Shown: piece by piece, positions 18,707-39,045 of the stretch
Position numbering within the stretch: position 1 is the first letter of the stretch
Layout of the letters: every line of letters begins with the position of its first letter
Assembly (NCBI GenBank): GCA_023300235.1
Contig: JALZWN010000267.1
Coordinates: 1-39,265, forward strand
From: Mariniblastus sp.
GTDB taxonomy: Bacteria > Planctomycetota > Planctomycetia > Pirellulales > Pirellulaceae
Reading direction: 5' to 3'
Length of the DNA stretch: 39,265 nucleotides
Made by a program: the position numbers and the translations under genes
Notes under the pieces: generated by a model
The model's input: only the letters and a program-made list of their open reading frames with translations
Told to the model about the DNA's origin: nothing
Databases searched by the model: none

Positions 18707-18890
18707 GTTAGCGGTGTAACATCCATGCGAGGTAATTTAATCATTTCTGTTTTGTTTGCGATTTCAAACTCGCCCATAAGGCAACCGCCGGGTTTGGTTT
18801 AGCGGCCAGCCGAAGGCGACGGTGCTTTCAAGCCGCGAAACTAATTTACAGTCTACCACCAGAATCAACCCAAAGGTTTGAGGGTAGGGT

Positions 18891-19135
18891 AAATCTGTTT
18901 TTGAATCAGGGTGCTCTGGTAGTCCGACGCGTTAGGGAGGAACCAGGTGCAATCCTCACTAACGGGCCCGTTGATTTAGCATATTTTGGCGAAGTCTAAA
19001 AAATGTGGAGATGGGCTTTCAGCCTGTCTTACTCGCTGCCCCCATGCAAATGACAGGCTGGAAGCCCATCACCACATTTCCTCGCAAACGTGTCGGGCTA
19101 CTAATTATAAGGATTTCCTTGTTTGTGAAGCGGGC
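18891..19135. repeat. Palindromic intergenic repeat, copy E
   Basis: The left end (18891-18941) reads AAATCTGTTTTTGAATCAGG, then the core TGGTAGTCCGACGCGTTAGG. The right end (19079-19125) is the same core in the opposite direction, TCCTCGCAAACGTGTCGGGC followed by TACTA. The ends thus form inverted repeats. Inside are a hairpin (18930-18941 with 18953-18964) and a 28-base inverted repeat (19001-19028 with 19052-19079). It matches the copies around metG at both ends but has a different interior. Confidence 0.75.
19001..19079. repeat. 28-bp inverted repeat inside copy E
   Basis: Arms 19001-19028 and 19052-19079 pair over 28 positions with one mismatch and one G-T pair, around a 23-base loop. 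The left arm contains GATGGGCTTTCAGCCTGTC and the right arm its near complement. The right arm plus loop recur, in the opposite orientation, in copy F at about 24350-24387. Confidence 0.85.
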
Positions 19136-23560: not shown

Positions 23561-23650
23561 AGGGAAATGTTATCCCCGCGGATGAGCGAGGAATCCATCG
23601 TCGGCTTTGCCTCCGTAAAAGGCGACTATCTCCGTATGACTAAAACAATG
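23561..23650 (+). repeat. Palindromic intergenic repeat, shortened copy C
   Basis: The left part AAATGTTATCCCCGCGGATG AGCGAGGAA corresponds to the left end and core of the metG copies. It runs through a section like GTCGCCTTTGCCTCCGT and joins directly to AAAAGGCGACTATCTCCGTA, which belongs near the right end of those copies. The whole middle (about 200 bases) is missing, leaving a compact hairpin. Confidence 0.6.
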
Positions 23651-24166: not shown

Positions 24167-24267
24167 TTGGCGGGCATGCGCCATCGGTGTAGATCTGAGA
24201 AAATCGGTGGCTAATTTATACTTTAACGCAGAATGTTTAGCCATGGATCTACATAGATCTTCATTGC

Positions 24268-24420
24268 AAATCAGTTTTTGAAACGGGGAGTCCTGGAGGC
24301 CGATGCGCCAGCGAGAGCAAATGGTAGCCCGACGCGTGAGCGAGGAACTTGTGGTGATGGGCTTCTAGCCTGTCATTTGCATGGGGCTCGTGGTGGATAA
24401 GACAGAAAGACGGCAGGCGG
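24268..24420 (+). repeat. Palindromic intergenic repeat, copy F
   Basis: Begins AAATCAGTTTTTGAAACGGG (24268), then carries the core TGGTAGCCCGACGCGTGAGC GAGGA (24322-24346). It continues with GTGGTGATGGGCTTCTAGCC and TGTCATTTGCATGGGG, matching the reverse complement of the right half of copy E (19036-19077) almost base for base. A matching right end was not found, so the copy is probably truncated. Confidence 0.7.
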
Positions 24421-31293: not shown

Positions 31294-31918
31294 GGGGGCG
31301 GCAATTCAAACGTAGAAAAGATGCTTGGCACATTTGCCAAAATTGGAAGTGGAGTATGACTGAATCACCTAGTTTGGAATAGTTCGTGTGCCGCCGAAAA
31401 GCTGTTTTTCCAGCGTTCATGCGTCAGCCCGCCAAGCCCATAGTCGCCTTTGACTCCGTGAAAGTAGTGCTACCTTAGGTGGACGTCTATAAAGCGGTTG
31501 GCTCTGAATAAACAGGCGTCTTGTAGCTCGGCGTTTATCTTCGGCCGGCGTTTATCTAAAGAGCTGCACAGGAGTGGCTGAATGAGAGATTTGTCGAGTT
31601 CACGTTAGCTTTGTAGAAATACGGTCCTGCTTGTTCGCCCATGCAAACGCTTCTTTCACGGAGAGAAAGGCGACTATCTGCGAATGACGGAATCGACACG
31701 CCCGTTGGCGAGGAACCCATGGAAATCCTCGCTCACGCGTCGGGCTACCATCGATAGGAACTTCCTAATTTGCCAAACTGATTCACCCGCCAAACCCTCT
31801 GCACTGGCCTGACGCAAGAGCACCATTCCCGGTAAAATCCGCACTGCTCCTGAAGTTTGAAAGAGATTCCTTTAATAGTTCGGCGAACCGCAAAACAGCT
31901 TTTCGCGTCCAATCAAGC
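31294..31918. other. Divergent gene-free stretch upstream of metG with repeat copy A
   Basis: 625 bases between the divergently transcribed glycosidase and metG genes. About 31430-31784 is repeat copy A. The remaining 134 bases before metG form its leader; I saw no T-box and could not fix a promoter. Confidence 0.6.
31430..31784 (+). repeat. Palindromic intergenic repeat, copy A (before metG)
   Basis: Aligns with copy B (34010-34405) from CCCATAGTCGCCTTTG at 31437 onward. 39 consecutive bases (31625-31663 versus 34254-34292) are identical, followed after one mismatch by GAAAGGCGACTATCT. The right end has a hairpin and the inverted core TCCTCGCTCACGCGTCGGGC TACCA (31726-31750), then GGAACTTCCTAATTTG as in the outer end of copy B. 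The left end is degenerate. Confidence 0.8.
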
Positions 31919-33997
31919 ATGAACCAACGCAAAATCCTTGTCACCAGTGCCTTACCCTACGCCAACGGCCCCATTCATTTGGGACACTTGGTCGAATATA
32001 TCCAGACGGATATTTGGGTTCGTTTTCAAAAGCTCCGTGGGCACAACTGCATTTACATGTGTGCCGACGATACGCACGGCACCGCCATCATGCTGCGGGC
32101 TCGTAAAGAAGGCCGCAGCGAAGACGAAGTGATTGCCGAAGCGAACGAAGATCATCAAAAAGACTTCGCAGGCTTTCAGGTAAACTTTGACAACTACGGC
32201 AGCACCAACAGCGACGAAAACAAAAAGCTGTGCGGAGAAGTCTGGCAGGCGATCCGCGATGCGGGCCTGGTCGTGGAGAAAGACGTCGAGCAATTGTTCG
32301 ACGTTCAAGAAGGCACGTTCTTGGCCGACCGCTTTGTAACCGGTACCTGTCCGACTTGTGGCAAGCCCGATCAGGCTGGCGACAACTGCGAATGCGGTGC
32401 CACCTATTCGCCGGTAGATTTGATCGACCCGGTCAGCACGATTTCGGGGACCAAGCCAGAGATTCGAACGGCCAAGCACTTGTTCATTCAACTTGAGCAG
32501 TTGCATGGGTTCCTCGAAGAGTGGACTCAGTCGGGCAAGCATTTGCAACCGGAAGTAGCTAACTATCTACGCGGCCACTTTCTGGGCGATCCCAATAGCA
32601 AAGAAGGTGCGAAAGAACTGCGCGACTGGGATATCTCTCGACCAGCTCCCTATTTCGGTTTTGAAATTCCAGATGCCCCCGGGAACTATTGGTATGTCTG
32701 GTTCGATGCACCGATCGGGTACATGGCTTCGACTCAGCAATGGTGCGATGCCAACGGTGAAAAACTTGACGATTGGTGGAAGAGCGACGACGTTGAGATT
32801 CACCACTTCATCGGAAAAGATATTACTTACTTCCACACGTTATTTTGGCCGGGGATGTTGAAAGCGTCTGGTTATAGCTTGCCGAAAAAAATTCACATCC
32901 ATGGTTTTTTGACTGTCAACGGTCAGAAAATGTCAAAGCGTGATGGCACGGCGTTCAAAGCTTCGACTTACTTGAAGCACTTGGATCCGACCGCGTTACG
33001 GTATTTCTACGCATCTAAGTTAGGCCCGCGGCTGGATGATATCGACTTGAGCATGACCGAGTTCGTAAGTAAGGTGAATTCTGACTTGGTTGGCAAGGTC
33101 GTGAACTTGGCTTCGCGAAGTGCAAAGTTTGTCAAAGACGTCGGTTTGTCGGCTACCTATCCGGACGACGGTGGGTTGTTCGCTGCAGGTGCTGCGGCCG
33201 GCGAAGAGATCGCGGCGGCTTATGAAGCCTGTGAATACAACAAAGCCATGCGTTTAGTGATGGAGTTGGCCGATCGAGCCAATCCGTACGTCGAAAACGC
33301 CGAGCCTTGGGTGCTGAAGAAGGATCCAGAGAAGGCTCAAGAACTACAAGACGTTTGTACGATTGCGTTAAACTTGTTCCGGCAGTTGGTGATTTATCTA
33401 TCGCCAGTCCTTCCAGAGCTGGCCGAAAAAACAGCGACGTTGTTCGGCGAACCGATTACGTCTTGGGACCAAGCACAAACTCCGCTGGTAGGTACGCCAG
33501 TGGCGAAATTTAAACACATGATGAAACGAATTGAAGAAAAGGATATCACTGCGATGGAAGAAGAAAGCCAACAAGAAGCCGCTGAAATCAAAGCCGCCGA
33601 AGCCAATGCAGCCGCCGCGGATCAATACGGTGATAGCGGTCAGCCAATGATCGACGAACCGATGACCGAAGAGTGCACGATCGAAGACTTTGTGAAAGTT
33701 GATTTGCGAGTGGCACGGATTGTCAGCGCGGAACACGTCGAGGGTGCTCGGAAGCTGTTGAAGCTTACGTTGTCTTTGGGCGGCGATCATCGCAAGCAGG
33801 TTTTCGCCGGCATCAAAGCGGCTTATGAGCCCGAGGCGTTGGTCGGGCGATTGGTTGTGATGGTGGCCAACTTGAAGCCGCGTAAAATGAAATTTGGCTT
33901 GAGCGAAGGCATGGTTTGTGCTTCGGGCCCCGGTGGAGAAGAGGTCTTCTTGCTAAGCCCAGACGAAGGTGCAAAGCCTGGGCAGCGAGTCCACTAA
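31919..33997 (+). CDS. metG: Methionyl-tRNA synthetase
   Basis: 692 residues; charges tRNA-Met with methionine in the cytoplasm. The catalytic Rossmann core has the HIGH motif as HLGH (20-23) and KMSKR (337-341). The zinc knuckle inserted in the core shows C144-x2-C147 and then C157-x1-C159 ([12 protein letters not shown]), one residue shorter in the second pair than the usual CxxC. After the anticodon-binding helical domain comes an Ala/Glu-rich linker ([20 protein letters not shown]), then a C-terminal tRNA-binding domain from about residue 586 ([39 protein letters not shown]), which dimerises such enzymes. ATG 31919. It stands alone, bracketed by two similar repeats. Confidence 0.98.
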
Positions 33998-34455
33998 GGT
34001 TTCGGGGGGAATCAGTTTTACAAATTCGGAAGTCCCTTTAAATGGTAGCCCAACGCGTTAGCGAGGAACCCATAGTCGCCTTTGCCTCCGTGAAAGTAGC
34101 GTTACCTTCGGTGTACATTCACAACGCGTTTGGCTCTGAATTAACAGGAGTTGTTTAGACCGTTTTTTTAAGGCCGGCGTTTATCCCAAGACCTCCTGCG
34201 GAGTGACCGGATAAGAGACCTGCCGAGTGCATCTTAGCTTTGTAGAAACGTGTTCCTGCTTGTTCGCCCATGCAAACGCTTCTTTCACGGAGTGAAAGGC
34301 GACTATCTCCGCATGGCTAAATCAACAGGCGCGTTAGCGAGGATTATTACGGGTTCCTCGCTAACGCATCGGGCTACCAGAATGCCGAGCTTCAAAAACT
34401 GGTTTACCCTGGCTAAGGTTTGGCGGTTGTTTTCAACCGCGAATTATGGCGGGGC
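33998..34455. other. Gene-free stretch after metG holding repeat copy B
   Basis: 458 bases between the 3' ends of metG and the BshC-like gene. Almost all of it (34010-34405) is repeat copy B; no other terminator for either gene was seen, so the element's hairpins may do that work. Confidence 0.65.
34010..34405 (+). repeat. Palindromic intergenic repeat, copy B (after metG), best-preserved
   Basis: The left end AATCAGTTTTACAAATTCGG (34010) leads to the core TGGTAGCCCAACGCGTTAGC GAGGA (34043-34067). The right end is the reverse complement: TCCTCGCTAACGCATCGGGC TACCA (34355-34379) and then TTCAAAAACTGGTT (34391-34404). Terminal inverted repeats are thus about 55 bp, imperfect. Inside the right end is a 13-bp perfect hairpin (34331-34343 with 34355-34367), and subterminal segments near 34073 and 34285-34307 are also mutually inverted. 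No coding frame is inside. Confidence 0.85.
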
Positions 34456-36099
34456 CTAAACGGCAAAGTTCTTTTCCGTCAGCCGCTTCAAATCATCGAC
34501 CAAGCTCTCGCCGAACAAGCAAAAACTATATTCTCGCGAGTTGGCGATTTCGCTGGAGCGTAGCTGAGCGGTCAACGACTCGATTTCTTTGCCTAGTTCG
34601 TCGTCTGATGGTTTTAGAAGTGCTCGCAATGCTTGATTGATCTTGGTGATGGCGAGGTGCTTTTCGAGTGACCAAATGTCTGGCGAATCGATCCACTGAC
34701 GCTTTTGTTTAATCAATTCAACGGCTTGAGAGGGCAGTGAATTGCTCGCCAAAAAACGCTCCGGATGAAAGTTGTACTCGCGGCGACGAGTTCGCAGTTG
34801 CGTGATGTCCGCTTGGGAGAGTTTCGGAACCTGAGTCGGCAAGCAGAAAGTCGCGGAGACGGTAAGGTGTTTTGGTAGTCGGCAGCCAAAGAACGTTTGG
34901 CAGATTGCATCGGTCAATTGATCGTACTTCGCGCCACCGACCCCATGAATAAAGATGTCCGACATAAATAGCCGGCAGAACATCGTGGTTGAAATCGCAC
35001 GTGATCGAATTGTGATGCCGAGTGTTTTTAGCTGTTTAAACGCACTGATGAAATCAGCTTTAGGGATTGTTTGGCTGAGTTGTTTGCGGTCGGACAATTC
35101 AAACGATTCAGGGAGGTTGCGAATGAACAGGCGTTGGCGTTCTGGGATTTGATCGGACGAAATCCAGAATGGCACTTCCGTCCATCCGTCGATTTGTTCC
35201 AGTGCTGGGACCGGGTGCGAGCTGCTGCGAATCCGATTGACGTGTCGGTATTCGAGCAATACTTGGTTGTAGCAGTTCAGAAACTCGGTTGCTCGATCAA
35301 AGACCGCAGCTGCAAAGGTCGCAAACGTTGTTGTTTGGCAGAGTTTGCTGACGGGAACTTCGAGAGTACGTAGACCGATGTTTTGTTCGAAGCGATGTCG
35401 TCCGGCGGCGATCGTTGCTCCGAGCATCGGTGCGGGAGTCGATTTTGAGAGTTCTGTATAGGCTTGGTTCACTTCCGGCCAAAGTCGTTGAGCGATGCAA
35501 GGTTCGTTGGCGAAGGCGATTTGGTGGATTCGGTTTGCTGTTTCAAAAAAGAACGAGCTATCTTGAATCGAACGTTGCTCATGAGGCATGACTGCGTCGG
35601 GCTTATCGATGGCGATTGTTTGAGTGCGAACGGGTTCGGAGGCTAGGTCTGGGCAGCGAATCGTGTGGTGATTTGACAAGTCCGAGTCGACGATCAAGTT
35701 GACGGCGATTCCATTAGCGCGATCGGCTAGTTCAGACAAGACAAAGTTTTTGTACCACACGCCCGCGTGATAGAGCACCGGTTGGTGCCCAGACATGACG
35801 ATCGGTTGATCGGCCAAGTCGATCGATTGGCGATGAGGCAAGTACTGGTTTGAATAGCTTAAGGCGGATTCGATCAGTTCGTTCCGGGCTCGTGACTGCA
35901 ACTGGCCGAGAGTTGGGTTTTCGTTGAAGAAAGAAATCTTTAACGGCGTCGCAGCTTGGCTTTTGATATGATCGCGATTGGCGTCCAGCCGGCGGGGCGC
36001 TTGGTTGAGCGGTGGAAGGTGCAGCGCCGATTTGTTCTGCTGAGGAACCCTGATGCGTTGGCGATCAATCGCGGGTTGACGAGGGTGAGGATCAACCAA
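34456..36099 (-). CDS. BshC-like protein of unknown function
   Basis: 547 residues in the open frame from a TTG at 36099; the true start may be further in, since conserved-looking sequence begins near residue 52 (PLKISFF). Motifs: VMSGHQPVLYHAGVWYKN (101-118), AVNLIVDSDLSNHHTI (132-147), RSRAISTTMFCRLF and FIHGVGGAKYD (383-393). Their order and spacing parallel the bacillithiol cysteine-adding enzyme BshC (GQQPGLF, the PVFW-EDHD segment, and the GGPAE-type loop), and the length agrees, but the residues differ enough that function is open. It is soluble, without a signal. It overlaps the end of the glycosyltransferase gene by eight bases in this start choice, indicating an operon. Confidence 0.8.
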   Translation of the reverse strand: MVDPHPRQPAIDRQRIRVPQQNKSALHLPPLNQAPRRLDANRDHIKSQAATPLKISFFNENPTLGQLQSRARNELIESALSYSNQYLPHRQSIDLADQPIVMSGHQPVLYHAGVWYKNFVLSELADRANGIAVNLIVDSDLSNHHTIRCPDLASEPVRTQTIAIDKPDAVMPHEQRSIQDSSFFFETANRIHQIAFANEPCIAQRLWPEVNQAYTELSKSTPAPMLGATIAAGRHRFEQNIGLRTLEVPVSKLCQTTTFATFAAAVFDRATEFLNCYNQVLLEYRHVNRIRSSSHPVPALEQIDGWTEVPFWISSDQIPERQRLFIRNLPESFELSDRKQLSQTIPKADFISAFKQLKTLGITIRSRAISTTMFCRLFMSDIFIHGVGGAKYDQLTDAICQTFFGCRLPKHLTVSATFCLPTQVPKLSQADITQLRTRRREYNFHPERFLASNSLPSQAVELIKQKRQWIDSPDIWSLEKHLAITKINQALRALLKPSDDELGKEIESLTAQLRSSEIANSREYSFCLFGESLVDDLKRLTEKNFAV

Positions 36100-39000: not shown

Positions 39001-39045
39001 TGTCGCCTTTTACTCCGTAAAAGAGCGCACTCTCAGGACAGCCTA
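39001..39045 (+). repeat. Palindromic intergenic repeat, fragment D
   Basis: TGTCGCCTTTTACTCCGTAA AAGAGCGCACTCTCAGGAC follows the left inner part of copies A and B (GTCGCCTTTGACTCCGTGAA in A). The core and outer end are not recognisable, so this is a fragment. Confidence 0.5.

What the first reader, a model, noticed from the sequence alone, without database searches (positions are those of the whole stretch)
34010..34405. MITE-like element with about 55-bp inverted ends and a nested hairpin
This non-coding segment has imperfect terminal inverted repeats (AATCAGTTTT... core TGGTAGCCC; right end GGGCTACCA...AAAACTGGTT), subterminal inverted segments (near 34073 and 34285-34307), and a perfect 13-bp hairpin at the right end. 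At least five other copies or fragments with the same core exist in this window. The form is that of a small non-autonomous mobile element or a REP-type repeat; no transposase is present to explain it. No target-site duplication was visible.
Basis: seen in the sequence. Interest (0 to 1): 0.72.

Follow-up and report, generated by a model that had tools for sequence, protein, structure and literature searches.

The report
ISAs1-type miniature transposon carrying nested hairpins
A 409-base stretch of non-coding DNA in a planctomycete genome is one copy of a large family of miniature jumping elements, most likely moved by a borrowed ISAs1-type transposase, that carries REP-like hairpin repeats inside fixed ends.

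Summary
In 54 paired-end elements of the same genome the duplication register is exactly 10 bp: 23 of 54 match at 7 or more of 10 positions, against 13 of 2862 mispaired flanks. Ends are CAGGG...CCCTG. Four of eight ISAs1-family elements read here have similar ends and perfect 10-bp duplications, and a paper gives CAGGG and 10 bp for ISAs1. Best reading: a MITE moved in trans by an ISAs1-family DDE transposase, although none was detected in this genome. The REP/RAYT reading fails for the whole element but fits its cargo: 47 of 54 elements hold a GTAG-tagged palindrome, and the size classes (about 133, 245 and over 360 bp) reflect further palindromes nested inside. Related species carry the same ends around different palindromes, mostly with 10-bp duplications. 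A new MITE family, of modest interest.

The parts
33993..34002 (.). left copy of the target-site duplication, ACTAAGGTTT; contains the TAA stop (33995-33997) of the methionyl-tRNA synthetase gene
   Evidence: Pfam of the gene
34003..34411 (+). the whole MITE, 409 bp, ends CGGGGGGAATCAGTTTT ... (reverse complement) CAGGGTAAACCAGTTTTT
   Evidence: paired ends with a 10-bp duplication
34412..34421 (.). right copy of the target-site duplication, GCTAAGGTTT (9 of 10)
34003..34019 (+). left terminal repeat, A type (2 mismatches to CAGGGYRAATCNGTTTT)
34395..34411 (-). right terminal repeat, B type (1 mismatch)
34043..34074 (+). left REP-like arm, TGGTAGCCC-AACGCGTTAGCGAGG-AACCCATA
   Evidence: arm of I2
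34348..34379 (-). right REP-like arm, inverted copy of the above
   Evidence: arm of I2
34072..34117 (+). left inner arm with the hairpin GTCGCC-TTTGCCTCCGTGAAAG
   Evidence: arm of I1
34261..34306 (-). right inner arm with the hairpin GTCGCC-TTTCACTCCGTGAAAG
   Evidence: arm of I1
34331..34367 (.). perfect 13-bp hairpin (arms 34331-34343 and 34355-34367)
   Evidence: I3
31437..31790 (+). second long-class copy; right end at 31790 (3 mismatches), left end not found
   Evidence: 78% over 314 nt
18885..19129 (.). middle-class copy; left end 18885 (1 mismatch), right end decayed
23565..23648 (+). fragment
24262..24348 (+). partial copy: end motif at 24262 (2 mismatches) and REP core at 24328
39002..39027 (.). 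isolated inner-hairpin fragment

Best explanation
34003-34411 is a copy of a non-autonomous DDE transposon (MITE). An ISAs1-family transposase supplied in trans most likely recognised the CAGGG-ending inverted repeats and joined the element to a target cut with a 10-base stagger; repair then made the 10-bp duplication. Shown: many copies across the genome, matching ends, a single 10-bp register of flank duplication, no sizeable ORF inside, and a short element-free gap at the same gene junction in three relatives. Inferred: that the enzyme was of ISAs1 type (from end motif plus duplication length), and that movement has ceased or is rare here (long-class cores average 83% identity, many duplications are eroded, no transposase was detected). 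Inside the ends sits a REP-like palindrome, and in longer classes further palindromes nest within it; these look like cargo.
For: 54 paired-end elements: per-position flank identity 0.46-0.61 in the 10-bp register against about 0.25 when mispaired, other registers near background; 23 of 54 at 7 or more of 10, against 13 of 2862 mispairs; permutation 0 of 2000 on the 9-bp score. 118 ends with at most 1 mismatch in this genome, control 0. ISAs1 elements L209, L212, L214 and L122 have ends CA(G/C)(G/T)G-N-AATC and 10 of 10 duplications. Passages in PMC11946415 (CAGGG, 10-bp repeat) and PMC6305408 (ISArsp11). Related elements with 9-10 of 10 duplications in three other genomes. Junction without the element.
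Against: No ISAs1 gene found in the genome: PF13808 0, PF01609 0; the genome is a 94.8% complete draft, so a helper may be missing from the assembly. Beyond CAGGG..AATC the ends do not match the ISAs1 elements read. Of eight ISAs1 yardsticks, L213 gave 9 bp with CACGG ends, and L210, L211 and L121 gave nothing clear. 31 of 54 pairs match below 7 of 10. One of the 54 pairs (L201) re-uses the right end of another (L146), so it is spurious.
Confidence: 0.82

Rival explanations
1. The whole element is a REP/BIME/REPIN-type repeat moved by a RAYT (Y1, HUH) transposase acting on single-stranded hairpins.
For: The arms contain a GTAG-tagged palindrome, the RAYT substrate mark described in PMC3733652 (passages). 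One Y1_Tnp-like ORF of 208 aa exists in the genome, below the family cut-off, and Y1_Tnp is found in 19 of 28 genomes of the genus. REPs also occur without MITE ends.
Against: 10-bp target duplications, which RAYT or IS200-type movement is not known to make (recalled). The nearest REP core to the RAYT-like ORF is over 3 kb away and itself lies in a MITE. Twelve RAYT loci of relatives show only three short weak matches to the modules.
Confidence: 0.06
2. It is a MITE of another DDE family that also makes 10-bp duplications, not of ISAs1.
For: No ISAs1 gene found here; only ISAs1 elements were used as yardsticks.
Against: End motif CAGGG..AATC and 10-bp length both agree with ISAs1; ISAs1 genes occur in 6 of 28 genomes of the genus.
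Confidence: 0.1
3. It is mainly a structured RNA or regulatory element kept by selection.
For: Strong fold; position between two convergent genes; paired changes in the inner hairpin (C-G 36, T-A 8 of 59 hairpins).
Against: 14 of 59 are G-G mismatches at that same pair; no terminator-like or promoter-like site; no Rfam match at gathering thresholds; the copies are scattered and flanked by target duplications.
Confidence: 0.02

Closest known systems
ISAs1-family insertion sequences
   Same: Ends beginning CAGGG (or CACGG) and a 10-bp target duplication
   Different: No transposase gene, 72-645 bp instead of about 1.2-1.3 kb, and no end similarity beyond CAGGG..AATC
Bacterial MITEs (type with inverted repeats and target duplications)
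   Same: Short, non-coding, inverted ends, many copies, target duplication
   Different: Up to three nested layers of palindromes, and different palindromes inside the same ends across species
GTAG-tagged REPs and RAYT/REPtron systems (PMC3733652, passages)
   Same: The inner palindrome carries GTAG and occurs in inverted pairs; the passages name R. baltica as a host of several REP families
   Different: Here the palindrome lies inside a DDE-type MITE in at least 10 of 30 sampled REP sites, and no RAYT flanked by it was seen

Membership tests
MITE | terminal inverted repeats | tested here: met
MITE | target-site duplication of fixed length | tested here: met
   10 bp
MITE | no transposase gene inside | tested here: met
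   no ORF over 38 aa wholly inside
MITE | many copies in the genome | tested here: met
ISAs1-related (helper family) | ends starting CAGGG | tested here: met
   family trait
ISAs1-related (helper family) | 10-bp target duplication | tested here: met
ISAs1-related (helper family) | ISAs1 transposase in the same genome with the same ends | tested here: not met
   PF13808 0 hits, PF01609 0 hits, no ISAs1 ORF in the MITE loci fetched; draft genome
REP / BIME moved by RAYT | GTAG-tagged palindrome | tested here: met
   cargo only: 47 of 54 elements hold the core
REP / BIME moved by RAYT | RAYT gene flanked by the same repeat | tested here: not met
REP / BIME moved by RAYT | no target duplication on movement (recalled) | tested here: not met
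   10-bp duplications

The most novel reading that the evidence does not exclude
In Pirellulaceae and kin, one pair of ISAs1-type ends acts as a chassis that picks up and exchanges REP-type palindromes, so that part of a GTAG REP family was spread by a DDE transposase rather than by RAYTs. Within one genome (Pirellulales IP29b_bin.16) the same ends hold different palindromes, and the palindrome CCCGACGCGTNAGCGAGG sits in this chassis both there and in the window's genome.
Probability: 0.35. Interest if true: 0.62.

Novelty: new variant of a known kind. Interest (0 to 1): 0.42.

Why it matters
It gives a planctomycete repeat family a definite transposition mechanism (exact ends, a 10-base stagger, a candidate enzyme family) and shows REP-like hairpins travelling inside a DDE-type MITE. 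That bears on the open question of how REP palindromes reach high copy number in genomes with few RAYTs. Otherwise it is ordinary mobile-element biology.

Tried and rejected
RAYT/REPIN origin of the whole element: rejected on the 10-bp duplications and because the one RAYT-like ORF has no REP core within 3 kb in the stretch read. Rfam family: no match at gathering thresholds. Terminator or promoter: none by the simple scan. Hairpin covariation: mixed, 8 paired changes but 14 mismatched cells at the same pair, so not used as support. Autonomous copy: by eye, no pair of ends 1-3 kb apart in the places listed (the listing for this genome is partial); no ISAs1 ORF in the MITE loci fetched (360 loci plus the window, where the only hits are in loci fetched as ISAs1 genes or yardsticks). 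ISAs1 pieces of genus-mate G009: many broken, ends not resolved. Context of insertions relative to genes: stop-to-stop frames on short loci, too crude, not used. Near-full-length copies in 29 relatives: none, only 25-53 nt module matches in 10 of 29.

Literature: search listings. No listed title or abstract start describes an ISAs1-related MITE or MITEs of Pirellulaceae; the library lacks most subscription journals, so this is no proof of absence. Papers seen as passages only: PMC3733652, PMC3542288, PMC10969869, PMC6305408, PMC11946415, PMC3281130. That RAYTs leave no target duplication is recalled, from no call.

Full report
What is there. The reported structures are real. The outer arms, subterminal arms and the 13-bp hairpin were found by the repeat finder, and the stretch folds far better than shuffled DNA (z -7.5, 0 of 100 shuffles as good). 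BLAST of the element against the window finds a second long copy at 31437-31750 (78% over 314 nt), with its outer end reaching 31790, plus shorter copies and fragments at 18886-19129, 23565-23648, 24319-24348 and 39002-39027.

Genome-wide family. The genome (4.73 Mb, 311 contigs, 94.8% complete) gives 121 matches with only 40 of 312 first-look candidates scored. A query for one end gives 42 matches with 40 of 233 scored. The end pattern CAGGGYRAATCNGTTTT with at most one mismatch occurs 118 times here (0 for the reversed pattern) and 0 to 4 times in each of the other 27 genomes of the genus. Searching 29 other genomes with the whole element gives only 25-53 nt module matches, in 10 of the 29. 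The family was therefore amplified in this lineage.

Exact ends and target duplication. An alignment of 30 copies and of end sequences puts the ends at CAGGG...CCCTG. I paired ends in 126 overlapping own-genome loci and kept 54 pairs; one pair (L201) re-uses the right end of another (L146) and is spurious. Among registers 5 to 13 only 10 bp stands out: 0.46-0.61 identity per position, against about 0.25 for mispaired flanks. There 23 of 54 match at 7 or more of 10 positions, two of them at 10 of 10, against 13 of 2862 mispairs. A permutation test on the 9-bp score gave 0 of 2000 as high as observed. The other 31 of 54 are below 7, as old or wrongly paired elements would be. For the finding itself the duplication is ACTAAGGTTT / GCTAAGGTTT and the element is 34003-34411. 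The left copy contains the TAA stop of a methionyl-tRNA synthetase gene (31919-33997). No ORF over 38 aa lies wholly inside the element; one of 69 aa runs out of its right end.

Junction without the element. Of 26 other genomes of the genus that matched the end of that gene, 23 gave a usable 3' end. None of the 23 has an end motif with 3 or fewer mismatches in the bases read after the stop (500 bp in 21, and 316 and 59 in two). The next gene of the window (34456-36099) was found downstream in 6 of the 23. In three (L351, L355, L356) its near end lies about -16, 60 and 10 bp from the stop; in the other three (L335, L336, L350) it lies 1.0-1.25 kb away. In the window the gap is 458 bp, or 39 bp once the element and one duplication are subtracted.

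Which transposase. I looked for the ends of eight ISAs1-family elements by the best joint score of inverted repeat and 8-11 bp duplication. L209 (annotated ISAzs15), L212, L214 and the genus-mate element L122 have ends CAGGGCAATCGCTTG, CAGTGCAATCGGGTG, CAGGGCAATCGGGTG and CACGGCAATCGCTTG, with perfect 10-bp duplications. L213 gives 9 bp with CACGG ends; L210, L211 and L121 gave nothing clear. A passage of PMC11946415 states that ISAs1 has 14- to 22-bp inverted repeats starting with CAGGG and a 10-bp direct repeat. A table in PMC6305408 gives ISArsp11 (ISAs1) the ends CAGGGCTGATG... and a 10-bp repeat. The MITE ends, CAGGG(C/T)(A/G)AATC, agree on both traits but not further inward. No ISAs1 gene was found in this genome with PF13808 or PF01609; 6 of 28 genomes of the genus have PF13808 matches, 4 of them over the cut-off. 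The helper is therefore inferred, not shown.

Cargo. 47 of the 54 paired elements hold the REP core (4 or fewer mismatches to CCCGACGCGTNAGCGAGG), against 0 of 54 shuffled elements. Of 18 elements of 120-165 bp, 17 hold it alone. Of 18 of 190-290 bp, 15 hold a palindrome with GGGCTTCCAGCCTGTC. Of 11 above 360 bp (the spurious L201 pair included), 7 hold the GTCGCCTTTCACTCCGTGAAAG hairpin arms; this is the class of the finding. Seven are shorter than 120 bp. So the longer classes look like the small element with further palindromes nested inside. Cores of 30 long-class copies average 83% pairwise identity (75-96%, 435 pairs). The exact REP core occurs 93 times in the genome (control 0). Of the first 30 places, 10 have an end motif (2 or fewer mismatches) upstream, nine of them at exactly 38 or 46 bp and one at 29; two could not be tested. 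At a control distance it was 0 of the 27 that could be tested. So many REPs also occur without recognisable MITE ends.

Other species. A scan of the public genome collection with a stricter end pattern gave 66 stretches, many of them chance hits in unrelated organisms. Elements with both ends were found in the Pirellulales MAG IP29b_bin.16 (5 pairs from 10 loci: duplications 9, 10, 9, 9 and 9 of 10), in Rubripirellula obstinata (8 and 6 of 10), and in the genus-mates G002 (10, 9 and 3 of 10) and G006 (9 of 10). The pattern fixes most of the first 21 bases, but similarity runs on for some bases (TTTTTCAAACTGGG) in several of them. The palindromes inside differ: in IP29b three elements hold CCCGACGCGTAAGCGAGG (one arm imperfect in L230) and two hold AGCGC(C/T)AGCAAGGGAA; R. 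obstinata and G002 hold others. In 241 genomes of the family the strict pattern is in 7, with 23 of 32 hits in this genome.

Judgement. That this is a MITE with 10-bp target duplications is shown. The ISAs1 assignment is a strong inference. That these ends act as a shared carrier for REP-type palindromes is the most novel reading the evidence allows, and it is not proven.

Noticed in passing
L007 (G000:C266:6326-7007): The left part of the long-class element (about 187 bp) is repeated head to tail three times in a row before the full copy.
   Followed up: partly
window 18885-19129; many own-genome loci: A palindrome of about 60 bp, TGTGGWGATGGGCTTCCAGCCTGTC...GACAGGCTGGAAGCCCATCWCCACA, is nested in 15 of 18 middle-class elements and may itself be a mobile or REP-like unit.
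   Followed up: partly
L031-L033, L041-L047 (genus-mates G002, G010, G015): The inner hairpin ATAGTCGCCTTTCGCTCCGCGAAAGTAGCG occurs there as separate, often inverted pairs, a further REP-like family.
   Followed up: partly
L144 (G000:C249:9134-9778): A 645-bp paired-end element holds extra sequence with inverted repeats of its own, perhaps an unrelated repeat inserted inside a MITE.
   Followed up: no
L123, L127-L138 (genus-mate G009): This genome has 13 mostly broken ISAs1-like pieces, a possible former helper population in the genus.
   Followed up: partly
L048 (G000:C271): The only Y1/RAYT-like ORF found in the genome (208 aa, below the Pfam cut-off) stands without flanking REPs.
   Followed up: partly
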